Of a stretch of DNA of 34,286 nt, positions 617 through 34,286 are shown in pieces (position 1 is the stretch's first letter; each line of letters begins with the position of its first letter). The DNA is taken from NCBI RefSeq assembly GCF_000003605.2, contig NW_003150348.1, forward strand, positions 1 through 34,286, read 5' to 3'. The notes beneath the pieces were generated by a model. The model was not told the DNA's origin and did no database searches. It saw only the letters and a list, made by a program, of their open reading frames with translations. The stretch is from Saccoglossus kowalevskii. Lineage: Eukaryota > Hemichordata > Enteropneusta > Harrimaniidae. The translations under genes were made by a program, and so were the position numbers.

Positions 617-880
617 GTCATTATGTCAAACATGATGAGTCCAATTCTGCCCTTTGACATTGAATTTCTCATTTGATGTCACCGTATTGACCTTTGTGCA
701 ATCATATATTGAGTAACGCAGTCAGAACATGCGCCATTTTAAATTGAAAACAATTCCATGAATTACGTAATCGACGATGCAGAACGCAATCAAAACTGTC
801 GCCACTTGAATTTGAAAACAATTCATTAATGACATAAACGACCATGCAGTATTAGTAGAATTTGCACAAAACAGGAGACG
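617..880 (-). repeat. Left-edge unit remainder: 5' flank and spacer without its tRNA gene
   Basis: Starts in class A flank sequence, runs through the two ~67-bp spacer modules and ends at the next tRNA copy (881). The gene this flank should serve would lie left of 617, where the retrotransposon now sits. Several changes not seen in the inner array are present, such as CATTGAATTTCTCATTTGATG and GTATTGACC. Confidence 0.8.
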
Positions 881-968
881 TTCTTCGAGCCGGATTCGAA
901 CCAGCGACCTAAGGATAACAGCGAATGACCACTACAGTCCTCCGCTCTACCAACTGAGCTATCGAAGG
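881..968 (-). tRNA. tRNA-Tyr copy, C1:A72 mismatch
   Basis: Outermost full-length copy. Only exon change is G72 to A (base 882). One intron substitution. Flank class A with ATAAAGTC instead of ATGTAGTC. Confidence 0.75.
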
Positions 969-1221
969 GATGACATAAAGTCATTATGTCAAACATGATG
1001 AGTCCAATTACATAAATTCACTAGGTCAAACACGATGCGTCCAATTCTCGAAGGGATGACATAAAGTCATTATGACAAGCATGATGAGTCCAATTCTGCC
1101 TTTTGACATTGAATTTCTCATTTGATGTCACCGTATTGACCTTTGTGCAATCATATATTGAGTAACGCAGTCAGAACATGCGCCAATTTAAATTGAAAAC
1201 AATTGCACAAAACAGGAGACG
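969..1221 (-). repeat. Rearranged edge spacer with triplicated 5' flank
   Basis: The GTCAAACATGATGAGTCCAATT flank motif appears three times, at about 980-1009, 1020-1046 and 1066-1095. A stray TCGAAGG (1048-1054), the first seven bases of a tRNA-Tyr gene, lies between copies two and three, so a tRNA 5' end was once here. The rest is normal spacer, shortened before 1200. Confidence 0.75.
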
Positions 1222-1269
1222 TTCTTCGAGCCGGATTCGAACCAGCGACCTAAGGATAACAGCAAATGA
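1222..1269 (-). pseudogene. tRNA-Tyr fragment: 3' exon and part of intron
   Basis: Matches the 3' exon (positions 38-73, with A72) and the adjoining 12 intron bases, then switches abruptly at 1269/1270 to spacer sequence (TTTTAAATTGAAAACAATTC). The 5' exon and A box are gone. Confidence 0.85.
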
Positions 1270-1413
1270 TTTTAAATTGAAAACAATTCTTTGAATTACG
1301 TAAGCGACGATGAAAAACGCAATCAAAACTGGCGCCACTTGATTTTGAAAACAATTCATTAATGACATAAACGACCATGCAGTATTAGTAGAATTTGCAC
1401 AAAACATGAGACG

Positions 1414-1501
1414 TCTTTCGAGCCGGATTCGAACCAGCAACTTAAGGATAACAGCAAATGACCACTACAGTCGTTCGCTCTACCAACTGAGCTATCGAAG
1501 G
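1414..1501 (-). pseudogene. Degenerate tRNA-Tyr copy
   Basis: Five exon changes: A71 (mismatch with C2), T48 (breaks the G15-C48 tertiary pair), A45, C29 (mismatch with C41 in the anticodon stem) and A27. Flank class A with GTAATAATTATG. Intron normal. Confidence 0.8.
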
Positions 1502-1777
1502 GATGACATGTAATAATTATGTCAAACATGATGAGTCTAATTCTGCCTTTTGACATTAAATGTCTCATATTGATGTCACCGTTTTGACGTTTGTGCAATT
1601 ATATATTGAGTAACGCAATCAGAAAATGCGCCATTTTAAATTGAAAACACTCCCATGAATTACGTAATCGACGATGCAGAACGCAATCAAAACTGGCGTC
1701 ACGTGAATTTGAAAACAATTCATTAATGACGAAAACGACCATGCAGTATTAGTAGAATTTGAGCAAAACAGGACACG

Positions 1778-1862
1778 TCCTTCGAGCCGGATTTGAACCA
1801 GCGACCTAAGGATAACAGAAGACCACTACAGTCCTCCGCTCTACCAACTGAGCTATCGAAGG
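1778..1862 (-). tRNA. tRNA-Tyr-GTA: tRNA-Tyr copy with a 12-nt intron
   Basis: The intron has lost three bases from its middle, the only intron length change in the array. Exons differ only by A57, which the B box tolerates. Flank class C. Confidence 0.85.
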
Positions 1863-2137
1863 GATGACATGTAGTCATTATGTCAAACATGATGACCCCA
1901 ATTCTGCCATTTGACATTGAATGTCTCATTATGATGTCACCGTTTTGACGTTTGTGCAATCATATATTGAGTAACGCAATCAGAACATGCGCCATTTTCA
2001 ATTGAAAACACTTTCATGAATTACGTAATCGACGATGCAGTACGCAATCAAAACTTGCGCCACTCGAATTTGAAAACAATCATTAATGACGTAATCGACC
2101 ATGAAGTACTAGTACTATGTACGCAAAATAGGACACG

Positions 2138-2225
2138 TCCTTCGAGCCGGATTCGAACCAGCGACCTAAGGATAACAGCAAATGACCACTACAGTCCTCC
2201 GCTCTACCAACTGAGCTATCGAAGA
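2138..2225 (-). tRNA. tRNA-Tyr-GTA: tRNA-Tyr copy, T1:G72 wobble
   Basis: C1 is T, turning the first pair into a wobble. Flank class A with GTCTAATTATG variant. The same change and flank recur at 8299, so the two are block copies. Confidence 0.8.
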
Positions 2226-2500
2226 GATGACATGTAGTCATTATGTCAAACATGATGAGTCCAATTCTGCCATTTGACATTGAATATCTAATTATGATGT
2301 CACCGTTTTGACGTTTGTGCAATCATATATTGAGTAACGCAATCAGAACATGGCCATTTTAAATTGAAAACACTTTCATGAATTACGTAATCGACGATGC
2401 AGTACGCAATCAAAACTTGCGAAACTCGAATTTGAAAACAATTCATTATTGACGTAATCGACCATGAAGTATTAGTACAATTTACGCAAAACAGGACACG

Positions 2501-2577
2501 TCCTTCGAGCCGGCGAATTAAGGATAACAGCAAATGACCACTACAGTCCTCCGCTCTACCAACTGAGCTATCGAAGG
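2501..2577 (-). pseudogene. tRNA-Tyr copy lacking the T loop
   Basis: Eleven bases covering the T loop and most of the 5' T-stem strand are missing (GCCGG joins CGAATTAAGG), removing the B box. The copy at 8662 has the same A45/T46 variant without the deletion and is the likely sister. Flank class B. Confidence 0.9.
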
Positions 2578-2852
2578 TATGACATTAAGTCATTATATCA
2601 AACACGATGACCCCAATTCTGCCCTTTGACATTGAATGTCTCATTTTTATGTCACCGTTTTGACGTTTGTGCAATCATATATTGAGTAACGCAATCAGAA
2701 CATGCGCCATTTTCAATTGAAAACACTTTCATGAATTACGTAATCGACGATGCAGTACGCAATCAAAACTTGCGCCACTTGAATATGAAAACAATCATTA
2801 ATGACGTAATCGACCATGAAGTACGAGTACAATTTACGCAAAATAGGACACG

Positions 2853-2940
2853 TCCTTCGAGCCGGATTCGAACCAGCGACCTAAGGATAACAGCAAATGA
2901 CCACTACAGTCCTCCGCTCTACCAACTGAGCTATCGAAGG
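2853..2940 (-). tRNA. tRNA-Tyr-GTA: tRNA-Tyr(GTA), intact
   Basis: Exons and 15-nt intron match consensus. Flank class A. Downstream spacer reads ACGAGTAC, shared with 7935 and 9388. Confidence 0.95.
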
Positions 2941-3215
2941 GATGACATGTAGTCATTATGTCAAACATGATGAGTCCAATTCTGCCATTTGACATTGAAT
3001 GTCTAATTATGATGTCACCGTTTTGACGTTTGTGCAATCATATATTGAGTAACGCAATCAGAACATGGCCATTTTAAATTGAAAACACTTTCATGAATTA
3101 CGTAATCGACGATGCAGTACGCAATCAAAACTTGCGAAACTCGAATTTGAAAACAATTCATTATTGACGTAATCGACCATGAAGTATTAGTACAATTTAC
3201 GCAAAACAGGACACG

Positions 3216-3304
3216 TCCTTCGAGCCGGATTCAAATCAGCGACCTAAGGATAACAGCAAATGACCACTACAGTCCTCCGCTCTACCAAACTGAGCTATCG
3301 AAGG
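3216..3304 (-). pseudogene. Damaged tRNA-Tyr copy, T56 and D-loop insertion
   Basis: C56 is T and G53 is A, both in the B box and the G19-C56 elbow contact; one extra base sits in the D loop. Flank B-like (ATCGAACATGATGACCCC). Confidence 0.85.
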
Positions 3305-3579
3305 GATGACATGAAGTCATTATATCGAACATGATGACCCCAATTCTACCCTTTGACATTGAATGTCCCATTTTGATGTCACCGTTTTGACGTTTGTGCA
3401 ATCATATATTGAGTAACGCAATCAGAACATGCGCCATTTTCAATTGAAAACACTTTCTTGAATTACGTAATCGACGATGCAGTACGCAATCAAAACTTGC
3501 GCCACTCGAATTTGAAAACAATCATTAATGACGTAATCGACCATGAACTACTAGTACAATTTACGCAAAACAGGACACG

Positions 3580-3667
3580 TTCGTCGAGCCGGATTCGAAC
3601 CAGCGACCTAAGGATAACAACAAATGACCACTACAGTCCTCCGCTCTACCAACTGAGCTATCGAAGG
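3580..3667 (-). tRNA. tRNA-Tyr copy, two acceptor-stem mismatches
   Basis: A72 against C1 and C70 against T3. One intron substitution. Flank class C. The same double change recurs at 10840 and 26872. Confidence 0.7.
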
Positions 3668-3778
3668 GATGACATGTAGTCATTATGTCAAACATGATGA
3701 CCCCAATTCTGCCATTTGACATTGAATGTCTCATTATGATGTCACCGTTTTGACGTTTGTGCAATCATATATTGAGTA

Positions 3779-3912
3779 ACGCAATCAGAACATGCGCCAT
3801 TTTCAATTGAAAACACTTTCATGAATTACGTAATCGACGATGCAGTACGCAATCAAAACTTGTGCCACTCGAATTTGAAAACAATCATTAATGACGCAAT
3901 CGACCATGAAGT
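3779..3912. repeat. Internal duplication of the spacer: two ~67-bp modules (representative)
   Basis: 3779-3846 (68 bp) and 3847-3912 (66 bp) align: both start ACGCAATCA-AAC-TGYGCCA, share a TTGAAAACA core and end in an AATCGACSATG-AGT stretch. Every full unit has the pair, so the ancestral spacer arose by a local duplication before the whole unit was amplified. Confidence 0.8.
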
Positions 3913-3942
3913 ACTAGTACTATGTACGCAAAACAGGACACG

Positions 3943-4030
3943 TCCTTCGAGCCGGATTCGAACCAGCGACCTAAGGATAACAGCAAATGACCACTACAGT
4001 CCTCCGCTCTACCAACTGAGCTATCGAAGG
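3943..4030 (-). tRNA. tRNA-Tyr-GTA: tRNA-Tyr(GTA), intact
   Basis: Exons and intron match consensus. Flank class A. Spacer contains AGTACTAGTACT, a 12-base perfect palindrome. Confidence 0.95.
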
Positions 4031-4305
4031 GATGACATGTAGTCATTATGTCAAACATGATGAGTCCAATTCTGCCATTTGACATTGAATGTCTAATTAT
4101 GATGTCACCGTTTTGACGTTTGTGCAATCATATATTGAGTAACGCAATCAGAACATACGCCATTTTCAATTGAAAACTCTTTCATGAATTACGAAATCGA
4201 CGATGCATTAAGCAATCAAAACTTGTGCCACTTGAATTTGAAAACAACCATTAATGACGTAACCGACCATGCAGTATTAGTACAATTTACGCAAAACAGG
4301 ACACG

Positions 4306-4393
4306 TCCTTCGAGCCGGATTCAAATCAGCGACCTAAGGATAACAGCAAATGACCACTACAGTCCTCCGCTCTACCAACTGAGCTATCGAAGG
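4306..4393 (-). pseudogene. tRNA-Tyr copy with T56 and A53
   Basis: Same B-box damage and same B-like flank as 3216 but without the D-loop insertion, so they are block copies. Confidence 0.8.
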
Positions 4394-4654
4394 GATGACA
4401 TGAAGTCATTATATCGAACATGATGACCCCAATTCTACCCTTTGACATTGAATGTCCCATTTTGATGACACCGTTTTGACGTTTGTGCAATCATATATTG
4501 AGTAACGCAATCAGAACATGGCCATTTTAAATTGAAAACACTTTCATGAATTACGTAATCGACGATGCCGTACGCATTCAAAACTTGCGCCACTCGAATT
4601 TGAAAACAATCATTAATGACGTAATCGACCATGAAGTACTAGTACAATTTACGC

Positions 4655-4658
4655 AAAA
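4655..4658 (-). terminator. Pol III terminator of the reference copy
   Basis: TTTT on the minus strand, nine bases past A73. The same run follows nearly every copy; exceptions are 6121, 32699, 33901 and the doublet gene at 16713. Confidence 0.85.
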
Positions 4659-4678
4659 CAGGACACGTCCTTCGAGCC

Positions 4679-4689
4679 GGATTCGAACC
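4679..4689 (-). promoter_or_regulatory. Pol III B box of the reference copy
   Basis: Minus strand GGTTCGAATCC (tRNA positions 52-62) is an exact match to GGTTCRANYCC, the TFIIIC-binding B box. Confidence 0.92.
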
Positions 4690-4736
4690 AGCGACCTAAG
4701 GATAACAGCAAATGACCACTACAGTCCTCCGCTCTA

Positions 4737-4748
4737 CCAACTGAGCTA
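4737..4748 (-). promoter_or_regulatory. Pol III A box of the reference copy
   Basis: Minus strand TAGCTCAGTTGG (tRNA positions 8-19) fits the A-box consensus TRGCNNAGYNGG. Present at the matching place in nearly all copies. Confidence 0.9.
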
Positions 4749-5030
4749 TCGAAGGGATGACATGTAGTCTTTATGTCAAACATGATGAGTCCAATTCTGC
4801 CCTTTGACATTGAATGTCTCATTATGATGTCACCGTTTTGACGTTTGTGCAATCATATATTGAGTAACGCAATCAAAACATGCGCCATTTTAAATTGAAA
4901 ACACTTTCATGAATTACATAATCGACGATGCAGTATGCAATCAAAACTTGCGCCACTCGAATTTGAAAACAATCATTAATGACGTAATCGACCATGAAGT
5001 ACTAGTACAATTTACGCAAAACAGGACACG

Positions 5031-5118
5031 TCCTTCGAGCCGGATTCGAACCAGCGACCTAAGGATAACAGCAAATGACCACTACAGTCCTCCGCTCTAC
5101 CAACTGAGCTATCGAAGG
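5031..5118 (-). tRNA. tRNA-Tyr-GTA: tRNA-Tyr(GTA), intact
   Basis: Exons and intron match the reference. Flank class B, one of only five perfect genes with this flank. Confidence 0.95.
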
Positions 5119-5394
5119 GATGACATGTAGTCATTATATCAAACACGATGACCCCAATTATACCCTTTGACATTGAATGTCTCATTTTGATGTCACCGTT
5201 TTGACGTTTGTGCAATCATATATTGAGTAACGCAATCAGAACATGCGCCATTTTAAATTGAAAACACTTTCATGAATTACGTAATCGACGATGCAGTACG
5301 CAATCAAAACTTGCGCCACTTGAATTTGAAAACAATTCATTAATGACGTAACCGACCATGCAGTATTAGTACAATTTACGCAAAACAGGACACG

Positions 5395-5482
5395 TTCTTC
5401 GAGCCGGATTCGAACCAGCGACCTAAGGATAACAGCAAATGACCACTACAGTCCTCCGCTCTACCAACTGAGCTATCGAAGG
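5395..5482 (-). tRNA. tRNA-Tyr copy, C1:A72 mismatch
   Basis: Only exon change is A72. Flank class A (GCCAAAC). Its spacer has the ATTCATTAATGACGTAACC form that often accompanies A72 copies. Confidence 0.8.
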
Positions 5483-5757
5483 GATGACATGTAGTCATTA
5501 TGCCAAACATGATGAGTCCAATTCTGCCCTTTGACATTGAATGTCTCATTATGATGTCACCGTTTTGACGTTTGTGCAATCATATATTGAGTAACGCAAT
5601 CAAAACATGTGCCATTTTAAATTGAAAACACTTTCATGAATTACATAATCGACGATGCAGTATGCAATCAAAACTTGCGCCACTCGAATTTGAAAACAAT
5701 CATTAATGACGTAATCGACTATGAAGTACTAGTACAATTTACGCAAAACAGGAAACG

Positions 5758-5845
5758 TCCTTCGAGCCGGATTCGAACCAGCGACCTAAGGATAACAGCA
5801 AATGACCACTACAGTCCTCCGCTCTACCAACTGAGCTATCGAAGG
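5758..5845 (-). tRNA. tRNA-Tyr-GTA: tRNA-Tyr(GTA), intact
   Basis: Exons and intron match the reference. Flank class A. Confidence 0.95.
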
Positions 5846-5846
5846 G

Positions 5847-5861
5847 ATGACATGTAGTCAT
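5847..5861. promoter_or_regulatory. Flank dyad next to tRNA start (representative)
   Basis: ATGAC-5-GTCAT, an inverted repeat at about -2 to -16 of the tRNA gene at 5758. Present in most units. No factor is assigned; it could simply be repeat sequence. Confidence 0.4.
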
Positions 5862-5895
5862 TATGTCAAACATGATGAGTCCAATTCTGCCCTTT

Positions 5896-5908
5896 GACAT
5901 TGAATGTC
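5896..5908. promoter_or_regulatory. Second flank dyad (representative)
   Basis: GACATT-G-AATGTC, 6-bp arms around one base, at about -51 to -63 of the gene at 5758. Kept in both flank classes, absent from the four 41-bp-deleted flanks. Confidence 0.4.
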
Positions 5909-6002
5909 TCATTATGATGTCACCGTTTTGACGTTTGTGCAATCATATATTGAGTAACGCAATCAGAACAAGCGCCATTTTCAATTGAAAACACTTTCAT
6001 GA

Positions 6003-6012
6003 ATTACGTAAT
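6003..6012. other. Spacer palindrome ATTACGTAAT (representative)
   Basis: Perfect 10-bp palindrome in the first spacer module. B-type dimers often change it to ATTACATAAT. Confidence 0.5.
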
Positions 6013-6088
6013 CGACGATGCAGTACGCAATCAAAACTTGCGCCACTCGAATTTGAAAACAATCATTAATGACGTAATCGACTATGAA

Positions 6089-6098
6089 GTACTAGTAC
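6089..6098. other. Spacer palindrome GTACTAGTAC (representative)
   Basis: Perfect 10-bp palindrome 22 bases past the 3' end of the tRNA at 6121, beyond the terminator position. Often weakened to GTATTAGTAC next to A72 copies. Confidence 0.5.
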
Positions 6099-6120
6099 AA
6101 TTTACGCACAACAGGACACG

Positions 6121-6208
6121 TCCTTCGAGCCGGATTCGAACCAGCGACCTAAGGATAACAGCAAATGACCACTACAGTCCTCCGCTCTACCAACTGAGCT
6201 ATCGAAGG
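6121..6208 (-). tRNA. tRNA-Tyr-GTA: tRNA-Tyr(GTA), intact gene, terminator lost
   Basis: Exons and intron match the reference, but the downstream run reads TTGT instead of TTTT. The next TTTT is at 6056-6059, 62 bases past the gene. Flank class B. Confidence 0.93.
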
Positions 6209-6483
6209 GATGACATGTAGTCATTATATCAAACACGATGACCCCAATTATACCCTTTGACATTGAATGTCTCATTTTGATGTCACCGTTTTGACGTTTG
6301 TGCAATCATATATTGAGTAACGCAATCAGAACATGCGCCATTTTCAATTGAAAACACTTTCATGAATTACGTAATCGACGATGCCGTACGCATTCAAAAC
6401 TTGCGCCACTCGAATTTGAAAACAATCATTAATGACGTAATCGACCATGAAGTACTAGTACAATTCACGCAAAACAGGACACG

Positions 6484-6571
6484 TCCTTCGAGCCGGATTC
6501 GAACCAGCGACCTAAGGATAACAGTAAATGACCACTACAGTCCTCCGCTCTACCAACTGAGCTATCGAAGG
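6484..6571 (-). tRNA. tRNA-Tyr-GTA: tRNA-Tyr(GTA), intact exons
   Basis: One intron substitution only. Flank class A. Confidence 0.94.
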
Positions 6572-6846
6572 GATGACATGTAGTCATTATGTCAAACATG
6601 ATGAGTCCAATTCTGCCCTTTGACATTGAATGTCTCATTATGATGTCACCGTTTTGACGTTTGTGCAATCATATATTGAGTAACGCAATCAAAGCATGCG
6701 CCATTTTAAATTGAAAACACTTTCATGAATTACATAATCGACGATGCAGTATGCAATCAAAACTTGCGCCACTCGAATTTGAAAACAATCATTAATGACG
6801 TAATCGACCATGAACTACTAGTACAATTTACGCAAAACAGGACACT

Positions 6847-6934
6847 TTCGTGGAGCCGGATTCGAACCAGCGACCTAAGGATAACAGTAAATGACCACTA
6901 CAGTCCTCCGCTCTACCAACTGAGCTATCGAAGG
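6847..6934 (-). pseudogene. tRNA-Tyr copy with a wrecked acceptor stem
   Basis: A72, C70 and C68 give three mismatches in the seven-pair acceptor stem. Intron as at 6484. Flank class B. Confidence 0.85.
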
Positions 6935-7209
6935 GATGACATGTAGTCATTATATCAAACACGATGACCCCAATTATAGCCTTTGACATTGAATGTCTCA
7001 TTTTGATGTCACCGTTTTGACGTTTGTGCAATCATATATTGAGTAACGCAATCAGAACATGCGCCATTTTAAATTGAAAACACTTTCATGAATTACGTAA
7101 TCGACGATGCAGTACGCATTCAAAACTTGCGCCACTCGAATTTGAAAACAATCATTAATGACGGAATCGACCATGAAGTACTAGTACAATTTACGCAAAA
7201 CAGGACACG

Positions 7210-7297
7210 TCCTTCAAGCGGGATTCGAACCAGCAACCTAAGGATAACAGCAAATGACCACTACAGTCCTCCGCTCTACCAACTGAGCTATCGAAGG
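7210..7297 (-). pseudogene. Degenerate tRNA-Tyr copy
   Basis: T67 (wobble), C63 (mismatch with T51) and T48 (Levitt pair lost). Flank class A. Confidence 0.75.
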
Positions 7298-7571
7298 GAT
7301 GACATGTAGTCATTATGTCAAACATGATGAGTCCAATTCTACACTCTGACATTGAATGTCTCATTTTGATGTCACCGTTTTGACGTTTGTGCAATCATAT
7401 ATTGAGTTACGCAATCAGAACATGGCCATTTTAAATTGAAAACTCTTTCATGAATTACGTAATCGACGATGCAGTAAGCAATCAAAACTTGCGCCACTTG
7501 AATTTGAAAATAATCACTAATGACGTAATCGACCATGAAGTACTAGTACAATTTACGCAAAACAGGACACG

Positions 7572-7659
7572 TACTTCGAGCCGGATTCGAACTAGCGACG
7601 TAAGGATAACAGCAAACGACCACTACAGTCCTCCGCCCTACCAACTGAGCTATCGAAGG
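7572..7659 (-). pseudogene. tRNA-Tyr copy, T72 and A52
   Basis: T72 against C1, A52 against C62, C45 and G23. One intron change. Flank class B-like (TATATAAAACACG). Founder or sister of 9025 and 9751. Confidence 0.75.
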
Positions 7660-7934
7660 TATGACATTAAGTCCTTATATAAAACACGATGACCCCAATT
7701 CTGCCCTTTGACATTGAATGTCTCATTTTTATGTCACCGTTTTGACGTTTGTGCAATCATATATTGAGTAACGCAATCAGAACATGCGCCATTTTCAATT
7801 GAAAACACTTTCATGAATTACGTAATCGACGATGCAGTACGCAATCAAAACTTGCGCCACTTGAATATGAAAACAATCATTAATGACGTAATCGACCATG
7901 AAGTACGAGTACAATTTACGCAAAATAGGACACG

Positions 7935-8022
7935 TCCTTCGAGCCGGATTCGAACCAGCGACCTAAGGATAACAGCAAATGACCACTACAGTCCTCCGCT
8001 CTACCAACTGAGCTATCGAAGG
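7935..8022 (-). tRNA. tRNA-Tyr-GTA: tRNA-Tyr(GTA), intact
   Basis: Exons and intron match the reference. Flank class C. Same spacer mark as 2853 and 9388. Confidence 0.95.
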
Positions 8023-8298
8023 GATGACATGTAGTCATTATGTCAAACATGATGACCCCAATTCTGCCATTTGACATTGAATGTCTCATTATGATGTCAC
8101 CGTTTTGACGTTTGTGCAATCATATATTGAGTAACGCAATCAGAACATGCGCCATTTTCAATTGAAAACACTTTTCATGAATTACGTAATCGACGATGCA
8201 GTACGCAATCAAAACTTGCGCCACTCGAATTTGAAAACAATCATTAATGACGTAATCGACCATGAAGTACTAGTACTATGTACGCAAAATAGGACACG

Positions 8299-8386
8299 TC
8301 CTTCGAGCCGGATTCGAACCAGCGACCTAAGGATAACAGCAAATGACCACTACAGTCCTCCGCTCTACCAACTGAGCTATCGAAGA
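8299..8386 (-). tRNA. tRNA-Tyr-GTA: tRNA-Tyr copy, T1:G72 wobble
   Basis: Same T1 change and flank as 2138. Flank class A. Confidence 0.8.
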
Positions 8387-8661
8387 GATGACATGTAGTC
8401 ATTATGTCAAACATGATGAGTCCAATTCTGCCATTTGACATTGAATATCTAATTATGATGTCACCGTTTTGACGTTTGTGCAATCATATATTGAGTAACG
8501 CAATCAGAACATGGCCATTTTAAATTGAAAACACTTTCATGAATTACGTAATCGACGATGCAGTACGCAATCAAAACTTGCGAAACTCGAATTTGAAAAC
8601 AATTCATTATTGACGTAATCGACCATGAAGTATTAGTACAATTTACGCAAAACAGGACACG

Positions 8662-8749
8662 TCCTTCGAGCCGGATTCGAACCAGCGAATTAAGGATAAC
8701 AGCAAATGACCACTACAGTCCTCCGCTCTACCAACTGAGCTATCGAAGG
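8662..8749 (-). tRNA. tRNA-Tyr-GTA: tRNA-Tyr copy, variable-loop variant
   Basis: A45 and T46 only. Stems intact. Flank class B (ATTAAGTC). Twin of 27599, and of 2501 before its deletion. Confidence 0.85.
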
Positions 8750-9024
8750 TATGACATTAAGTCATTATATCAAACACGATGACCCCAATTCTGCCCTTTG
8801 ACATTGAATGTCTCATTTTTATGTCACCGTTTTGACGTTTGTGCAATCATATATTGAGTAACGCAATCAGAACATGCGCCATTTTCAATTGAAAACACTT
8901 TCATGAATTACGTAATCGACGATGCAGTACGCAATCAAAACTTGCGCCACTCGAATTTGAAAACAATCATTAATGACGTAATCGACTATGAAGTACTAGT
9001 ACAATTTACGCAAAACAGGACACG

Positions 9025-9112
9025 TCCTTCGAGCCGGATTCGAACTAGCGACGTAAGGATAACAGCAAACGACCATTACAGTCCTCCGCCCTACCAACTG
9101 AGCTATCGAAGG
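9025..9112 (-). pseudogene. tRNA-Tyr copy, A52 and A37
   Basis: A52:C62 mismatch in the B box, C45, G23, plus A37 directly at the 5' splice site. Flank class B-like. Confidence 0.7.
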
Positions 9113-12379: not shown

Positions 12380-12390
12380 GATGACATGTA

Positions 12391-16601: not shown

Positions 16602-16686
16602 TCCTTCGAGCCGGATTCGAACCAGCGACGTAAGGATAACAGCAAATGACCATTACAGTCCTCCGCTCTACCAACTGAGCTATCGA
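16602..16686 (-). pseudogene. tRNA-Tyr copy lacking its first three bases, second half of a doublet
   Basis: Positions 1-3 and the entire 5' flank are gone; TCGA joins TGATGTCACC. Also A37 and C45. It lies only 26 bp downstream of the copy at 16713 and keeps the TTTT terminator. Confidence 0.85.
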
Positions 16687-16712
16687 TGATGTCACCATTT
16701 TGACAGTACACG

Positions 16713-16800
16713 TCCTTCGAGCCGGATTCGAACCAGCGACCTAAGGATAACAGCAAATGACCACTACAGTTCTCCGCTCTACCAACTGATCTATCGAAGG
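16713..16800 (-). tRNA. tRNA-Tyr copy, first half of a doublet, no terminator
   Basis: A30 (mismatch with C40) and A11 (mismatch with G24). No TTTT lies between it and the partial copy at 16602, so a transcript would run through both. Flank class A. Confidence 0.75.
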
Positions 16801-25870: not shown

Positions 25871-26145
25871 GATGACATGTAGTCATTATGTCAAACATGA
25901 TGAGTCCAATTCTGCCCTTTGACATTTAATGTCTCATTATGATGTCACCGTTTTGACGTTTGTGCAATCATATATTGAGTAAGGCAATCAGAACATGCGC
26001 CATTTTCAATTGAAAACACTTTCATGAATTACGTAATCGACGATGCAGTACGCAATCAAAACTTGCGCCACTCGAATTTGAAAACAATCATTAATGACGT
26101 AATCGACCATGAAGTACTAGTACAATTTACGTAAAACAGGACACG

Positions 26146-26233
26146 TCCTTCGAGCCGGATTCGAACCAGCGACCTAAGGATAACAGCAAATGACCACTAC
26201 AGTCCTCCGCTTTACCAACTGAGCTATCGAAGG
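26146..26233 (-). tRNA. tRNA-Tyr copy, C13:A22 mismatch
   Basis: A22 only, at the end of the D stem. Flank class B, with a small indel swap at CATCATAATATTG. Confidence 0.78.
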
Positions 26234-26508
26234 GATGACATGTAGTCATTATATCAAACACGATGACCCCAATTATACCCTTTGACATTGAATGTCTCAT
26301 TTTGATGTCACCGTTTTGACGTTTGTGCATCATAATATTGAGTAACGCAATCAGACCATGGCCATTTTAAATCGAAAACACTTTCATGAATTACGTAATC
26401 GACGATGCAGTAAGCAATCAAAAACTTGCGCAACTCGAATTTGAAAACAATCATTAATGACGTAATCGACCATGAAGTACTAGTACAATTTACGCAAAAC
26501 AGGACACG

Positions 26509-26596
26509 TTCTTCGAGCCGGATTCGAACCAGCGACCTAAGGATAACAGCAAATGACCACTACAGTCCTCCGCTCTACCAACTGAGCTATCGAAGG
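26509..26596 (-). tRNA. tRNA-Tyr copy, C1:A72 mismatch
   Basis: A72 only. Flank class A. Confidence 0.78.
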
Positions 26597-26871
26597 GATG
26601 ACATGTAGTCATTATGTCAAACATGATGAGTCCAATTCTGCCCTTTGACATTTAATGTCTCATTATGATGTCACCGTTTTGACGTTTGTGCAATCATATA
26701 TTGAGTAACGCAATCAGAACATGCACCATTTTCAATTGAAAACACTTTCATGAATTACGTAATCGACGATGCAGTACGCAATCAAAACTTGCGCCACTCG
26801 AATTTGAAAACAATCATTAATGACGTAATCGACCATGAAGTACTAGTACAATTTACGCAAAACAGGACACG

Positions 26872-26959
26872 TTCGTCGAGCCGGATTCGAACCAGCGACC
26901 TAAGGATAACAGCAAATGACCACTACAGTCCTCCGCTCTAACAACTGAGCTATCGAAGG
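26872..26959 (-). pseudogene. Degenerate tRNA-Tyr copy, T19
   Basis: A72, C70 and T19; G19 is invariant and contacts C56. Flank class B. Confidence 0.82.
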
Positions 26960-27234
26960 GATGACATGTAGTCATTATATCAAACACGATGACCCCAATT
27001 ATACCCTTTGACATTGAATGTCTCATTTTGATGTCACCGTTTTGACGTTTGTGCAATCATATATTGAGTAACGCAATCAGAACATGCGCCATTTTCAATT
27101 GAAAACACTTTCATGAATTACGTAATCGACGATGCCGTACGCATTCAAAACTTGCGCCACTCGAATTTGAAAACAATCATTAATGACGTAATCGACCATG
27201 AAGTACTAGTACAATTTACGCAAAACAGGACACG

Positions 27235-27322
27235 TGCTTCGAGCCGGGTTCGAAACAGCGAGCTAAGGATAACAGCAAATGACCACTACAGTCCTCCGCT
27301 CTACCAACTGAGCTATCGAAGG
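27235..27322 (-). pseudogene. Degenerate tRNA-Tyr copy
   Basis: C72 against C1, C60, T53 in the B box and C46. Flank class A. Confidence 0.8.
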
Positions 27323-27598
27323 GATGACATGTAGTCATTATGTCAAACATGATGAGTCCAATTCTGCCCTTTGACATTGAATGTCTCATTATGATGTCAC
27401 CGTTTTGACGTTTGTGCAATCATATATTGAGTAACGCAATCAGAACATGCGCCATTTTAAATTGAAAACACTTTCATGAATTACGTAATCGACGATGCAG
27501 TACGCAATCAAAACTTGCGAAACTCGAATTTGAAAACAATTCATTATTGACGTAATCGACCATGAAGTATTAGTACAATTTACGCAAAACAGGACACG

Positions 27599-27686
27599 TC
27601 CTTCGAGCCGGATTCGAACCAGCGAATTAAGGATAACAGCAAATGACCACTACAGTCCTCCGCTCTACCAACTGAGCTATCGAAGG
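27599..27686 (-). tRNA. tRNA-Tyr-GTA: tRNA-Tyr copy, variable-loop variant
   Basis: A45 and T46, as at 8662 about 19 kb away, together with the same ATTAAGTC class B flank and spacer (GCGAAACTCGAATTTG). Evidence of long-distance block copying. Confidence 0.85.
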
Positions 27687-27962
27687 TATGACATTAAGTC
27701 ATTATATCAAACACGATGACCCCAATTCTGCCCTTTGACATTGAATGTCTCATTTTTATGTCACCGTTTTGACGTTTGTGCAATCATATATTGAGTAACG
27801 CAATCAGAACATGCGCCATTTTCAATTGAAAACACTTTCATGAATTACGTAATCGACGATGCAGTAAGCAATCAAAACTTGCGCCACTTGAATTTGAAAA
27901 ACAATCATTAATGACGTAATCGACCGTGAAGTACTAGTACAATTTACGCAAAACAGGACACG

Positions 27963-28050
27963 TCTTTCAAGCCGGATTCGAACCAGCGACATAAGGATAA
28001 CAGCAAATGACCACTACAGTCCTCCGCTCTACCAACTGAGCTATCGAAGG
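27963..28050 (-). pseudogene. tRNA-Tyr copy, A71, T67, T45
   Basis: C2:A71 mismatch and a wobble in the acceptor stem. Flank class B. Confidence 0.72.
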
Positions 28051-28120
28051 GATGACATGTAGTCATTATATCAAACACGATGACCCCAATTATACCCTTT
28101 GACATTGAATGTCTCATTAT

Positions 28121-28275
28121 GATGTCACCGTTTTGACGTTTGTGCAATCATATATTGAGTAACGCAATCAGAACATGCGCCATTTTCAATTGAAAACACT
28201 TTCATGAATTACGTAATCGACGATGCAGTACGCAATCAAAACTTGCGCCACTCGAATTTGAAAACAATCATTAAT
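28121..28275 (-). repeat. 155-bp unit without a tRNA gene (copy 1)
   Basis: From one GATGTCACCG landmark to the next. The 208-bp stretch with the tRNA gene and near flank is missing; CATTAATGA of the spacer joins TGTCACCG of the far flank, at a short homology with CATTATGA. Confidence 0.9.
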
Positions 28276-28480
28276 GATGTCACCGTTTTGACGTTTGTGC
28301 AATCATATATTGAGTAACGCAATCAGAACATGCGCCATTTTAAATTGAAAACACTTTCATGAATTACATAATCGACGATGCAGTATGCAATCAAAACTTG
28401 CGCCACTCGAATTTGAAAACAATCATTAATGACGTAATCGACTATGAAGTACTAGTACAATTTACGCAAAACAGGACACG

Positions 28481-28568
28481 TCCTTCGAGCCGGATTCGAA
28501 CCAGCGACCTAAGGATAACAGCAAATGACCACTACAGTCCTCCGCTCTACCAACTGAGCTATCGAAGG
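28481..28568 (-). tRNA. tRNA-Tyr-GTA: tRNA-Tyr(GTA), intact, 41-bp flank deletion
   Basis: Exons and intron match the reference. Flank deletion junction at 28580-28597. Follows a 155-bp unit on the left. Confidence 0.95.
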
Positions 28569-28801
28569 GATGACATGTAGTCATTTTGTCTCATTTTGAT
28601 GTCACCGTTTTGACGTTTGTGCAATCATATATTGAGTTACGCAATCAGAACATGGCCATTTTAAATTGAAAACTCTTTCATGAATTACGTAATCGACGAT
28701 GCATTAAGCAATCAAAACTTGCGCAACTCGAATTTGAAAACAATCATTAATGACGTAATCGACCATGAAGTACTAGTACAATTTACGCAAAACAGGACAC
28801 G

Positions 28802-28889
28802 TACTTCGAGCTGGATTCGAACCAGCGACATAAGGATAACAGCAAATGACCACTACAGTCCTCCGCTCTACCAACTGAGCTATCAAAGG
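28802..28889 (-). pseudogene. tRNA-Tyr copy, T72 and T5
   Basis: C1:T72 mismatch, T5 wobble, T45; A63 is compatible with T51. Flank class B. Same allele at 32337 and 33539. Confidence 0.72.
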
Positions 28890-29163
28890 GATGACATGTA
28901 GTCATTATATCAAACACGATGACCCCAATTATACCCTTTGACATTGATTGTCTCATTTTGATGTCATCGTTTTGACGTTTGTGCAAGCATATATTGAGTA
29001 ACGCAATCAGAACATGGCCATTTTAAATTGAAAACACTTTCATGAATTACGTAATCGACGATGCAGTGGGCAATCAAATGTTGCGCAACTCGAATTTGAA
29101 AACAATCATTAATGACGTAACCGACCATGCAGTACTAGTACAATTTACGCAAAACAGGTCACG

Positions 29164-29252
29164 TCCTTCAAGCCGGATTCGAACCACGCGACCTAAGGAT
29201 AACAGCAAATGACCACTACAGTCCTCCGCTCTACCAACTGAGCTATCGAAGG
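29164..29252 (-). pseudogene. tRNA-Tyr copy with T-stem insertion
   Basis: One extra base in the 5' T-stem strand (CCACGC) and T67. Flank B-like (CAGGATGACCCC). Confidence 0.78.
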
Positions 29253-29526
29253 GATGACATGTAGTCATTATATCAAACAGGATGACCCCAATTATACCCT
29301 TTCACATTGAATGTCTCATTTTGATGTCACCGTTTTGACGTTTGTGCAATCATATATTGAGTAACGCAATCAGAACATGGCCATTTTAAATTGAAAACAC
29401 TTTCATGAATTACGTAATCGACGATGCAGTGGGCAATCAAATGTTGCGCAACTCGAATTTGAAAACAATCATTAATGACGTAATCGACCACGAAGTACTA
29501 GTACAATTTACGCAAAACAGGACACG

Positions 29527-29614
29527 TCCTTCGAGCCGGATTCGAACCAGCGACATAAGGATAACAGCAAATGACCACTACAGTCCTCCGCTCTACCAAC
29601 TGAGCTATCGAAGG
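29527..29614 (-). tRNA. tRNA-Tyr-GTA: tRNA-Tyr copy, T45 only
   Basis: Single variable-loop change. Flank class B. Confidence 0.88.
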
Positions 29615-29684
29615 GATGACATGTAGTCATTATATCAAACACGATGACCCCAATTATACCCTTTGACATTGAATGTCTCATTAT

Positions 29685-29839
29685 GATGTCACCGTTTTGA
29701 CGTTTGTGCAATCATATATTGAGTAACGCAATCAGAACATGCGCCATTTTCAATTGAAAACACTTTCATGAATTACGTAATCGACGATGCAGTACGCAAT
29801 CAAAACTTGCGCCACTCGAATTTGAAAACAATCATTAAT
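29685..29839 (-). repeat. 155-bp unit without a tRNA gene (copy 2)
   Basis: Same junction as 28121-28275. Confidence 0.9.
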
Positions 29840-30044
29840 GATGTCACCGTTTTGACGTTTGTGCAATCATATATTGAGTAACGCAATCAGAACATGCGCC
29901 ATTTTAAATTGAAAACACTTTCATGAATTACATAATCGACGATGCAGTATGCAATCAAAACTTGCGCCACTCGAATTTGAAAACAATCATTAATGACGTA
30001 ATCGACTATGAAGTACTAGTACAATTTACGCAAAACAGGACACG

Positions 30045-30132
30045 TCCTTCGAGCCGGATTCGAACCAGCGACCTAAGGATAACAGCAAATGACCACTACA
30101 GTCCTCCGCTCTACCAACTGAGCTATCGAAGG
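30045..30132 (-). tRNA. tRNA-Tyr-GTA: tRNA-Tyr(GTA), intact, 41-bp flank deletion
   Basis: Exons and intron match the reference. Flank deletion junction at 30144-30161. Confidence 0.95.
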
Positions 30133-30366
30133 GATGACATGTAGTCATTTTGTCTCATTTTGATGTCACCGTTTTGACGTTTGTGCAATCATATATTGAG
30201 TTACGCAATCAGAACATGGCCATTTTTAAATTGAAAACACTTTCATGAATTACGTAATCGACGATGCAGTAAGCAATCAAAACTTGCGCAACTCGAATTT
30301 GAAAACAATCATTAATGACGTAATCGACCATGAAGTACTAGTACAATTTACGCAAAACAGAACACG

Positions 30367-30454
30367 TCTTTCGAGCCGGATTCGAACCAGCGACCTAAGG
30401 ATAACAGCAAATGACCACTACAGTCCTCCGCTCTACCAACTGAGCTATCGAAGG
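30367..30454 (-). tRNA. tRNA-Tyr copy, C2:A71 mismatch
   Basis: A71 only. Flank class A with ATATAGTCAGTATGGC changes. Confidence 0.75.
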
Positions 30455-30524
30455 GATGACATATAGTCAGTATGGCAAACATGATGAGTCCAATTCTGCC
30501 CTTTGACATTGAATGTCTCATTAT

Positions 30525-30679
30525 GATGTCACCGTTTTGACGTTTGTGCAATCATATATTGAGTAACGCAATCAGAACATGCGCCATTTTCAATTGAAAA
30601 CATTTTCATGAATTACGTAATCGACGATGCAGTACGCAATCAAAACTTGCGCCACTCGAATTTGAAAACAATCATTAAT
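30525..30679 (-). repeat. 155-bp unit without a tRNA gene (copy 3)
   Basis: Same junction. Here the next unit keeps a full-length class A flank, unlike the other three blocks. Confidence 0.9.
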
Positions 30680-30884
30680 GATGTCACCGTTTTGACGTTT
30701 GTGTAATCATATATTGAGTAACGCAATCAGAACATGCGCCATTTTAAATTGAAAACACTTTCATGAATTACATAATCGACGATGCAGTATGCAATCAAAA
30801 CTTGCGCCACTCGAATTTGAAAACAATCATTAATGACGTAATCGACTGTGAAGTACTAGTACAATTTACGCAAAACAGGAAACG

Positions 30885-30972
30885 TCCTTCGAGACGGATT
30901 CGAACCAGCGACCTAAGGATAACAGCAAATGACCACTACAGTCCTCCGCTCTACCAACTGAGCTATCGAAAG
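30885..30972 (-). tRNA. tRNA-Tyr copy, T64 and T2
   Basis: C50:T64 mismatch in the T stem and a T2 wobble. Flank class A. Confidence 0.73.
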
Positions 30973-31247
30973 GATGACATGTAGTCATTATGTCAAACAT
31001 GATGAGTCCAATTCTGCCCTTTGACATTGAATGTCTCATTATGATGTCACCGTTTTGACGTTTGTGCAAACATATATTGAGTAACGCAATCAGAACATGC
31101 GCCATTTTCAATTGAAAACACTTTCATGAATTACATAATCGACGATGCAGTACGCAATCAAAACTTGCGCCACTCGAATTTGAAAACAATCATTAATGAC
31201 GTAATAGACTATGAAGTACTAGTAAAATTTACGCAAAACAGGACACG

Positions 31248-31335
31248 TCCTTCGAGGCGGATTCGAACCTGCGACCTAAGGATACCAGCAAATGACCACC
31301 ACAGTTCTCCGCTCTACCAACTGAGCTATCGAAGG
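31248..31335 (-). pseudogene. tRNA-Tyr-derived copy with anticodon GTG
   Basis: A36 is G, so the anticodon reads GTG (histidine). Also C64, A51 (T stem mismatches) and A30 (anticodon stem mismatch); one intron change. C1-G72 and A73 stay tyrosine-like. Flank class A. Confidence 0.85.
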
Positions 31336-31610
31336 GATGACATGTAGTCATTATGTCAAACATGATGAGTCCAATTCTGCCCTTTGACATTTAATGTCTC
31401 ATTATGATGTCATCGTTTTGACGTTTGTGCAATCATATATTGAGTAACGCAATCAGAACATGCGCCATTTTCAATTGAAAACACTTTCATGAATTACGTA
31501 ATCGACGATGCAGTACGCAATCAAAACTTGCGCCACTCGAATTTGAAAACAATCATTAATGACGTAATCGACCATGAACTACTAGTACAATTTACGCAAA
31601 ACAGGACACG

Positions 31611-31698
31611 TTCTTCGAGCCGGATTTGAACCAGCGACCTAAGGATAACAGCAAATGACCACTACAGTCCTCCGCTCTACCAACTGAGCTATCGAAGG
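31611..31698 (-). tRNA. tRNA-Tyr copy, A72 and A57
   Basis: Same exon allele as 18160 but with flank class B. Confidence 0.75.
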
Positions 31699-31974
31699 GA
31701 TGACATGTAGTCATTATATCAAACACGATGACCCCAATTATACCCTTTGACATTGAATGTCTCATTATGATGTCACCGTTTTGACGTTTGTGCAATCATA
31801 TATTGAGTAACGCAATCAAAACATGCGCCATTGTCAATTGAAAACACTTTCATGAATTACGTAATCGACAATGCAGTACGCAATCAAAACATGCGCCACT
31901 TGAATTTGAAAACAATTCATTAATGTCGTAACCGACCACGCAGTATTAGTACAATTTACGCAAAACAGGACACG

Positions 31975-32062
31975 TTCTTCGAGCCGGATTCGAACCAGCG
32001 ACCTAATGATAACAGCAAATGACCACTACAGTCCTCCGCTCTACCAACTGAGCTATCGAAGG
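31975..32062 (-). pseudogene. tRNA-Tyr copy, A72 and A41
   Basis: Same allele and ATGTCGTAACCGACCACGC spacer as 21064, about 10.9 kb away. Flank B-like. Confidence 0.75.
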
Positions 32063-32336
32063 GATGACATGTAGTCATTATATCAAACATGATGACCCCA
32101 ATTATACCCTTTGACATTGAATGTCTCATTTTGATGTCACCGTTTTGACGTTTGTGCAATCATATATTGAGTAACGCAATCAGAATATGGCCATTTTAAA
32201 TTGAAAACACTTTCATGAATTACGTAATCGACGATGCAGTACGCATTCAAAACTTGCGCAACTCGAATTTGAAAACAATCATTAATGACGTAATCGACCA
32301 TGAAATACTAGTACAATTTACGCAAAACAGGACACG

Positions 32337-32424
32337 TACTTCGAGCTGGATTCGAACCAGCGACATAAGGATAACAGCAAATGACCACTACAGTCCTCCG
32401 CTCTACCAACTGAGCTATCAAAGG
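32337..32424 (-). pseudogene. tRNA-Tyr copy, T72 and T5
   Basis: Same allele as 28802. Flank class B. Confidence 0.72.
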
Positions 32425-32698
32425 GATGACATGTAGTCATTATATCAAACACGATGACCCCAATTATACCCTTTGACATTGATTGTCTCATTTTGATGTC
32501 ACCGTTTTGACGTTTGTGCAAGCATATATTGGGTAACGCAATCAGAACATGGCCATTTTAAATTGAAAACACTTTCATGAATTACGTAATCGACGATGCA
32601 GTAAGCAATCAAAACTTGCGCAACTCGAATTTGAAAACAATCATTAATGACGTAATCGACTATGAAGTACTAGTACAATTTACGCAATACAGGACACG

Positions 32699-32786
32699 TC
32701 CATCGAGCCGTATTCGAACCAGCGACCTAAGGATAACAGCAAATAACCACTACAGTCCTCCGCTCTACCAACTGAGCTATCGAAGG
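32699..32786 (-). pseudogene. tRNA-Tyr copy, T70 and A61, terminator lost
   Basis: T3:T70 mismatch and A61 in the T stem. The downstream run reads TATT; next TTTT is at 32634-32637. Intron changed. Flank class B. Confidence 0.75.
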
Positions 32787-32856
32787 GATGACATGTAGTC
32801 ATTATATCAAACACGATGACCCCAATTATACCCTTTGACATTGAATGTTTCATTTT

Positions 32857-33011
32857 GATGTCACCGTTTTGACGTTTGTGCAATCATATATTGAGTAACG
32901 CAATCAGAACATGCGCCATTTTCAATTGAAAACACTTTCATGAATTACGTAATCGACGATGCAGTACGCAATCAAAACTTGCGCCACTCGAATTTGAAAA
33001 CAATCATTAAT
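32857..33011 (-). repeat. 155-bp unit without a tRNA gene (copy 4)
   Basis: Same junction as the other three, again followed by a gene with the 41-bp flank deletion. Confidence 0.9.
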
Positions 33012-33216
33012 GATGTCACCGTTTTGACGTTTGTGCAATCATATATTGAGTAACGCAATCAGAACATGCGCCATTTTAAATTGAAAACACTTTCATGAAT
33101 TACATAATCGACGATGCAGTATGCAATCAAAACTTGCGCCACTCGAATTTGAAAACAATCATTAATGACGTAATCGACTATGAAGTACTAGTACAATTTA
33201 CGCAAAACAGGACACG

Positions 33217-33304
33217 TCCTTCGAGCCGGATTCGAACCAGCGACCTAAGGATAACAGCAAATGACCACTACAGTCCTCCGCTCTACCAACTGAGCTATCG
33301 AAGG
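33217..33304 (-). tRNA. tRNA-Tyr-GTA: tRNA-Tyr(GTA), intact, 41-bp flank deletion
   Basis: Exons and intron match the reference. Flank deletion junction at 33316-33333. Confidence 0.95.
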
Positions 33305-33538
33305 GATGACATGTAGTCATTTTGTCTCATTTTGATGTCACCGTTTTGACGTTTGTGCAATCATATATTGAGTTACGCAATCTGAACATGGCCATTTTAA
33401 ATTGAAAACTCTTTCATGAATTACGTAATCGACGATGCAGTAAGCAATCAAAACTTGCGCAACTCTCAATTTGAAAACAATCATTAATGACGTAATCGAC
33501 CATGAAGTACTAGTACAATTTACGCAAAACAGGACACG

Positions 33539-33626
33539 TACTTCGAGCTGGATTCGAACCAGCGACATAAGGATAACAGCAAATGACCACTACAGTCCCC
33601 CGCTCTACCAACTGAGCTATCAAAGG
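33539..33626 (-). pseudogene. tRNA-Tyr copy, T72, T5, G28
   Basis: The 28802 allele plus a G28-T42 wobble. Flank class B. Confidence 0.73.
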
Positions 33627-33900
33627 GATGACATGTAGTCATTATATCAAACACGATGACCCCAATTATACCCTTTGACATTGATTGTCTCATTTTGATG
33701 TCACCGTTTTGACGTTTGTGCAAGCATATATTGAGTAACGCAATCAGAACATGGCCATTTTAAATTGAAAACACTTTCATGAATTACGTAATCGACGATG
33801 CAGTAAGCAATCAAAACTTGCGCAACTCGAATTTGAAAACAATCATTAATGACGTAATCGACTATGAAGTACTAGTACAATTTACGCAATACAGGACACG

Positions 33901-33988
33901 TCCTTCGAGCCGGATTCGAACCAGCGACCTAAGGATAACAGCAAATAACCACTACAGTCCTCCTCTCTACCAACTGAGCTATCGAAGG
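33901..33988 (-). tRNA. tRNA-Tyr copy, G10:A25 mismatch, terminator lost
   Basis: A25 only. The downstream run reads TATT; next TTTT is at 33836-33839. Intron changed. Flank class B. Block copy of 32699 without its T70/A61 changes. Confidence 0.75.
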
Positions 33989-34263
33989 GATGACATGTAG
34001 TCATTATATCAAACACGATGACCCCAATTATACCCTTTGACATTGAATGTTTCATTTTGATGTCACCGTTTTGACGTTTGTGCAATCATATATTGAGTAA
34101 CGCAATCAGAACATGGCCATTTTAAATTGAAAACACTTTCATGAATTACGTAATCGACGATGCAGTAAGCAATCAAAACTTGCGCAACTCGAATTTGAAA
34201 ACAATCATTAATGACGTAATCGACCATGAAGTACATAGTACAATTTACGCAAAACAGAACACG

Positions 34264-34286
34264 TCTTTCGAGCCGGATTCGAACTG
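34264..34286 (-). tRNA. tRNA-Tyr copy cut by the window edge
   Basis: Only positions 51-73 are visible, with A71 as at 30367. The last visible bases, ACTG, differ from the usual ACCAG. Confidence 0.75.

What the first reader, a model, noticed from the sequence alone, without database searches (positions are those of the whole stretch)
617..34286. A very large single-isotype array: about 93 tRNA-Tyr copies in 33.7 kb
Sequence shows one intron-bearing tRNA-Tyr gene every ~363 bp, all on one strand, running off the window. Known parallels include the Arabidopsis Ser-Tyr-Tyr tRNA cluster and large tRNA arrays in zebrafish and Xenopus. A one-gene, one-isotype array of this density is unusual. It may supply extra tRNA-Tyr or may be a satellite that happens to carry the gene.
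Basis: partly seen in the sequence, partly recalled or inferred. Interest (0 to 1): 0.88.

Follow-up and report, generated by a model that had tools for sequence, protein, structure and literature searches.

The report
Acorn-worm tyrosine tRNA gene array
The window is a real head-to-tail array of about 93 tyrosine-tRNA genes from an animal that is very probably an acorn worm, and it is one of several such arrays in that genome, most of those read being devoted to a single kind of tRNA.

Summary
Confirmed. The window is a whole 34,286-bp contig. From 617 on it is an array with 93 tRNA-Tyr matches, all minus strand, 76 of 92 spacings 362-364 bp, anticodon GTA, 15-nt intron. Mitochondrial gene order and code fit published Saccoglossus, a hemichordate. 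The array family continues on contigs C2326 and C2836. 189 of 194 aligned units are distinct, which argues against assembly expansion.

The finding is wider than described. Of 11 tRNA kinds examined, 10 are arrayed; of the six kinds chosen blind, five are (iMet, Lys, Gly, Asn, Phe), while Asp gave only 5 non-arrayed matches. Dispersed Tyr and initiator-Met genes include other isodecoders, as in zebrafish, where egg tRNAs come from repeats (PMC11417395, passages). I favour a germline/oocyte-type supply kept alike by unequal exchange; expression is untested. Selfish amplification is the close rival: 135 of 194 Tyr copies carry exon changes, and the Lys copy read on C2779 is altered. Side lead: all 14 tRNA-Phe copies read carry a 33-35-nt T-loop insert.

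The parts
617..34286 (-). tandem array of tRNA-Tyr(GTA) units, consensus 363 bp, 93 gene matches, running to the contig end
6484..6571 (-). example unit gene: tRNA-Tyr with consensus exons (60.4 bits)
6520..6534 (-). 15-nt intron of the example gene, after anticodon-loop base 37
6471..6474 (-). TTTT run 9 nt after the end of the example gene, the likely Pol III terminator; 186 of 194 units have a TTTT in the 29-nt stretch at and after the gene's end
1224..1269 (-). truncated tRNA-Tyr fragment (46-nt match) near the left edge
3..413 (+). 3' end of a LINE reverse-transcriptase ORF (zf-RVT), followed by non-coding sequence and an A-run at 610-616 abutting the array

Best explanation
Shown: a real, isotype-pure tandem array of intron-bearing tRNA-Tyr genes in a genome that fits Saccoglossus, an acorn worm. 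The family fills the parts read of three contigs that total about 94 kb, with units alike across them, and at least ten tRNA kinds in this genome are arrayed. Inferred: units spread and are kept alike by unequal exchange or gene conversion, so single copies decay freely while the array consensus stays a canonical gene. Inferred, and less sure: Pol III transcribes the arrays mainly in the germline/oocyte to load the egg with tRNA, while the few dispersed genes, partly other isodecoders, serve the soma, as reported for repeat-borne and scattered tRNA genes of zebrafish.
For: Array and units. Same family on C2326 and C2836; mean unit difference 4.7-5.6% within and 4.8-5.6% between the pieces, with little trend with distance (4.7% at a lag of 2 units, 5.3% at 70-80). 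Of 194 units the anticodon is intact in 193, box A in 175, box B in 148, exons perfect in 59. Few dispersed copies: of 196 exact 20-mers in the assembly, 73 are in the window, 96 on C2326, at least 21 on C2836, leaving at most 6 elsewhere; four dispersed genes were found (capped list). Two of these (C1497, C1493) are other isodecoders, C1493 with paired changes in two stems; C4557 has the array gene exactly. Initiator Met: C3574 has the array type, C285 another with paired changes. BLAST found no shared flank beyond about 15 bp between array and dispersed Tyr genes, and no match between spacers of Tyr, Cys, Trp, iMet and Asn arrays and a Thr locus (Arg left out), so amplification looks independent. 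Zebrafish: isodecoders present in eggs are encoded in repetitive regions, those rising later by scattered genes (PMC11417395, passages). In pooled Tyr units, variants in four or fewer copies are denser in exons (72 in 73 sites against 145 in 221, p 0.006) and those in 20 or more copies rarer (1 against 18, Fisher p 0.009). CpG observed/expected is 1.36 in the window array, so no sign of germline methylation decay there.
Against: No expression data. Exon divergence is not clearly below spacer (2.1% against 3.5%, p 0.14). The exon/spacer contrast is absent in the window contig alone (p 0.83 and 0.86) and comes from C2326 and C2836; at 30 or more copies it is not significant (p 0.067). In the Asn array exons are more diverged than spacer (5.6% against 3.5%), and Trp shows no contrast. 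CpG observed/expected is mixed elsewhere (Thr locus 0.57, Cys and Trp 0.85). The Lys copy read on C2779 is altered. Asp has no detected array, which a general egg-loading scheme would not predict. The array terminator is only T4, while most of the dispersed genes read have longer T runs.
Confidence: 0.45

Rival explanations
1. Selfish, satellite-like amplification: tRNA genes are recombination-prone and their arrays grow by unequal exchange without benefit; most copies are silent or redundant.
For: Only 59 of 194 Tyr copies have perfect exons; exon and spacer divergence are similar by site and in the window contig alone there is no sign of selection; Asn array exons are more diverged than their spacer; the Lys copy read on C2779 is altered; Asp seems to manage with 5 matches.
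Against: The Tyr, iMet and Trp consensus and most of the Arg and Gly copies read are intact-looking tRNAs; few dispersed Tyr genes exist, so the array is probably a main source; high-frequency exon variants are depleted in the pooled units.
Confidence: 0.38
2. Constitutive supply: the arrays are the ordinary tRNA genes of all tissues, high in number by drift.
For: Canonical consensus; few dispersed Tyr genes.
Against: Pattern matches range from 5 for Asp to 290 for Asn (different mismatch limits), which codon demand would hardly explain.
Confidence: 0.13
3. Assembly expansion of a short cluster.
For: Contigs end inside the array; no read depth available.
Against: 189 of 194 units distinct; in the stretches read no two contigs share 1.5 kb above 98.1% identity; a LINE junction is assembled.
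Confidence: 0.04

Closest known systems
Homogeneous tDNA clusters of animals (survey PMC2888827, passages)
   Same: Neighbouring tDNAs of one amino acid under 1 kb apart, in parallel; clusters of fifty and more tDNAs are reported in Nematostella and teleosts
   Different: Here one gene per regular 363-bp unit, and arrays of one kind found for most tRNA kinds looked at, in a probable hemichordate
Entamoeba tRNA arrays (PMC2652664, passages)
   Same: Many tRNA kinds in tandem arrays with uniform units; low-copy dispersed genes for some kinds
   Different: Entamoeba units hold up to 5 tRNA genes, in some species with short tandem repeats between genes; here one gene per unit, except C2143
Arabidopsis SYY cluster (PMC12308677, passages)
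   Same: Tandem intron-bearing tRNA-Tyr genes with variant and pseudogene-like copies
   Different: SYY mixes Ser and Tyr and is silent in most tissues but active in root-tip cells; here Tyr only, expression unknown
Zebrafish repeat-borne tRNA genes, chromosome 4 (PMC11417395 and PMC11075544, passages)
   Same: Isodecoders in repeats differ from those of isolated genes, with some in both contexts
   Different: Stage-dependent abundance was measured there (PMC11417395), not here; PMC11075544 states the maternal role of these tRNA genes as a hypothesis

Membership tests
Homogeneous tDNA cluster | neighbouring tDNAs under 1000 nt apart with the same amino acid | tested here: met
   definition from PMC2888827. 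ARAGORN names 3 of 88 genes otherwise
Eukaryotic nuclear tRNA-Tyr gene | anticodon GTA, intron after base 37, cloverleaf, A and B boxes | tested here: met
Eukaryotic nuclear tRNA-Tyr gene | Pol III transcription and splicing | not testable with these tools
   no RNA data
Entamoeba-type tRNA array | units with up to several tRNA genes | tested here: not met
   one gene per 363-bp unit
Entamoeba-type tRNA array | short tandem repeats between genes (E. histolytica, E. dispar) | tested here: not met
   TRF lists only periods of 37 bp and longer in the window
Maternal (oocyte-type) repeat tRNA genes | isolated genes encode other isodecoders than the repeats | tested here: met
   met in part: Tyr 2 of 4 isolated genes (C4557 is array type, C2867 a mutated array type); iMet 1 of 2
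Maternal (oocyte-type) repeat tRNA genes | expression tied to oocyte and egg | not testable with these tools
   no RNA data
Satellite DNA without gene function | gene part evolves no slower than spacer | tested here: inconclusive
   mixed results

The most novel reading that the evidence does not exclude
An invertebrate deuterostome runs two tRNA gene sets: long arrays of one kind each as a germline/oocyte set, and a small dispersed somatic set with other isodecoders. With zebrafish this would make a maternal-array/somatic-dispersed tRNA system an old deuterostome trait, like oocyte and somatic 5S genes. In the same system, array-borne tRNA-Phe would be made by removing a T-loop insert, a non-canonical intron in an animal nuclear tRNA.
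Probability: 0.25. Interest if true: 0.8.

Novelty: new member of a known kind. Interest (0 to 1): 0.52.

Why it matters
Why some animals keep hundreds of tandem tRNA genes is open. This genome offers a useful natural contrast: at least ten kinds arrayed and one (Asp) apparently not, with array and dispersed genes of Tyr and initiator Met that partly differ in sequence or intron and so can be told apart by tRNA-seq. That makes 'egg supply' against 'selfish amplification' directly testable outside vertebrates.

Tried and rejected
ARAGORN's 'tRNA-Leu' calls were rejected as an artefact of leaving introns out. The recurrent 88-aa ORF on the other strand was not tested further; 363 is divisible by 3, so an open frame can recur by chance. 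Early guesses at the host (bivalve, lancelet and others, from recall) were dropped after the mitochondrial evidence. Transcription-associated mutagenesis as proof of germline transcription was considered and is not claimed: the exon excess fails in the window contig and in most other arrays. An anticodon-loop constraint test was not significant (5 of 91 variants, p 0.22). Scripts that failed or were superseded: stopped at Arg; no Arg units; fuzzy search missed most copies; one search replaces them, and there Arg again gave no units. Rows dropped: 231 copies or fragments were found in the three contigs; 195 units of 355-370 bp went into the alignment, one of them an empty row from the contig edge, so 194 count. 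One search's 'of 195' figures include that empty row and are restated here. Sequence examined: all 34.3 kb of C4039, 39.6 of 47.9 kb of C2326, 10.2 of 11.9 kb of C2836.
Full report
Observation. The window is the whole of contig C4039 (34,286 bp) of a 572-Mb, 4,830-contig genome held as G000. From 617 on it is a head-to-tail array. BLAST with the 88-nt gene gives 93 matches on one strand, 80 full length, 76 of 92 spacings being 362-364 bp. Rfam finds 91 tRNAs above its cut-off. With introns allowed ARAGORN tRNA-Tyr(GTA) among 88 genes; without them it genes, most of them as Leu. The first 616 bp are the end of a LINE (zf-RVT) with an A-run against the array, so the left edge need not be the array's end.

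Host. The one COX1 match in G000 lies on C4830, a 17,037-bp contig. It shows cox1 inverted, nad2 ahead of nad1 and nad5 next to cob; apart from cox1 I named these genes by eye from translations. In nad1, cox1 and cox2 AAA sits at Lys sites, AGA at a Ser site, AGG is absent, and ATA often sits where I recall Ile. PMC3121625 (passages) gives for Saccoglossus kowalevskii inversion of COX1, transposition of ND1 or ND2, AUA=Ile, AAA=Lys, AGA=Ser and no AGG. PMC2697986 (passages) gives nd5 next to cob in the hemichordates. I take the host as Saccoglossus, probably S. kowalevskii; no reference sequence of it was compared.

Extent. The same units fill the parts read of C2326 (47,865 bp) and C2836 (11,903 bp): 110 copies or fragments in 39.6 kb and 28 in 10.2 kb. 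An exact 20-mer of the gene occurs 196 times in the assembly, 0 for its reversed control; 73 of these are in the window. Units differ by about 5% within and between contigs with little trend with distance, so this is one homogenised family; whether it is one locus is not shown. 189 of 194 aligned units are distinct. In the stretches read, the longest match at 97% or more between pieces is 2.0 kb at 97.8%, and the best of those over 1.5 kb is 98.1%.

Anatomy. The 363-bp consensus holds 37 nt of exon, a 15-nt intron, 36 nt of exon and 275 bp of spacer. The spacer contains a degenerate internal repeat of about 66 bp. 186 of 194 units have a TTTT at the gene's end, though other TTTT runs in the spacer are as constant, so this alone shows nothing. 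Of 194 units exons are perfect in 59, box A intact in 175, box B in 148, anticodon in 193.

Selection. Mean divergence is 2.1% in exons and 3.5% in spacer, not significant by site (p 0.14). Counting distinct variants in 194 units, those in four or fewer copies are denser in exons (72 in 73 sites against 145 in 221, p 0.006; 49.5 expected from spacer rates by base), and those in 20 or more copies are rarer (1 against 18, Fisher p 0.009; at 10 or more p 0.0014; at 30 or more p 0.067). By contig, with lower cuts, the pattern is absent in C4039 (p 0.83, Fisher 0.86) and present in C2326 (0.0005, 0.003) and C2836 (0.002, 0.018). In other arrays it is mixed: Cys Fisher p 0.033, iMet low-frequency p 0.049, Trp none, Asn opposite in trend (p 0.09). 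I read this as weak support for array-level upkeep of the gene with free decay of single copies.

The wider system. Patterns add initiator Met (243 matches, at most 1 mismatch, about 603-bp spacing), Lys (40, at most 2), Gly (141, at most 3), Asn (290, at most 2; about 150-bp spacing) and Phe (238, at most 2; about 458 bp). These patterns were recalled from metazoan tRNAs; in each case the reversed control gave 0. Asp gave 0 exact matches and 5 with up to 3 mismatches, on three contigs and not arrayed; an Asp array of more different sequence would have been missed. So 10 of 11 kinds looked at are arrayed; Tyr, Arg, Cys, Thr and Trp came to notice because they are arrayed, so the fairer figure is 5 of the 6 chosen blind. 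C2143 differs: compound units of about 1.9 kb with Asn and initiator Met on one strand and Pro or Pro-like genes on the other.

Dispersed genes. Four Tyr genes outside the three contigs turned up (capped list); the 20-mer count leaves room for at most 6 with that exact arm. C4557 has the array gene and intron exactly, C2867 a mutated one, C1497 and C1493 other introns and isodecoders, C1493 with paired changes in two stems. No match with the array extends more than about 15 bp into their flanks, and most have longer T runs downstream than the array's T4. For initiator Met, C3574 has the array isodecoder and C285 another with paired changes. In zebrafish, isodecoders of eggs and early embryos lie in repetitive regions and late ones are scattered, with some in both (PMC11417395, passages); PMC11075544 (passages) offers as a hypothesis that the chromosome-4 tRNA genes are maternal. 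This parallel is the basis of my preferred reading. Selfish amplification is nearly as likely, given the decayed copies, the altered Lys copy on C2779 (the two copies read on C4166 score 63.2 and 58.2 bits) and the fact that Asp seems to do with five.

What is known. Homogeneous tDNA clusters, and clusters of fifty and more in Nematostella and teleosts, are reported in PMC2888827; tandem arrays in Entamoeba in PMC2652664; the Arabidopsis SYY cluster mixes Ser and Tyr and is active in root tips (PMC12308677); passages only in each case. Searches of the held library listed no title on tRNA arrays in a hemichordate; I saw listings there. Hence: new member of a known kind, with a wide and testable setting.

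Side lead. All 14 tRNA-Phe copies read (C544 8, one of them 5'-truncated; C4641 2; C913 3; C47 1) carry a 33-35-nt insert between T-loop bases 58 and 59 (a strict pattern caught 13 of 14). Between the C544 copy and the C913 and C47 copies compared, the 73 other bases differ at 1-3 sites, while the insert is identical at 22-24 of 35-36 columns. The insert can form a hairpin, but its energy beats shuffles clearly only for C47 (7 of 500 as low), weakly for C544 (44), and not for C913 (186 and 221). C47 has an acceptor mismatch. Exons kept and insert drifting is what an intron does; a duplicated T-arm in dead genes is the alternative. Genes without the insert may exist: 100 of 238 matches were listed and 14 were read.

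Noticed in passing
L073:117-222 and further copies in L073, L078, L081, L079, L080, L070: All 14 tRNA-Phe copies read carry a 33-35-nt insert between T-loop bases 58 and 59; without it the sequence is a standard-looking tRNA-Phe. The rest of the gene is nearly identical between families while inserts have drifted: a candidate non-canonical intron in an animal nuclear tRNA, or a duplicated T-arm in dead genes.
   Followed up: partly
L066 (C2143:1-4100): Compound repeat units of about 1.9 kb with tRNA-Asn and initiator tRNA-Met on one strand and tRNA-Pro or Pro-like genes on the other, unlike the one-gene arrays.
   Followed up: partly
L065 (C794:1-10000): tRNA-Asn array of about 150-bp units with exons more diverged than spacers (5.6% against 3.5%).
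   Followed up: partly
L074 (C2779:700-1400): The tRNA-Lys copy read has several changes and is missed by ARAGORN at default settings (Rfam 46.9 bits), while two copies on C4166 score higher.
   Followed up: partly
L076, L077; contigs C348, C2786, C4455: Asp-GTC is the exception: 5 matches with up to 3 mismatches, not arrayed.
   Followed up: partly
window 3-616: LINE 3' end with zf-RVT and an A-run abutting the array, so a retrotransposon may have inserted at or in the array.
   Followed up: partly
window 16602-16800: Two tRNA-Tyr genes only 111 bp apart, a local short-unit duplication.
   Followed up: no
window 28114-33643: Repeated sub-blocks of 155 and 321-322 bp, a local higher-order pattern; matches 1,364 bp apart recur near the end of C2326.
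   Followed up: no
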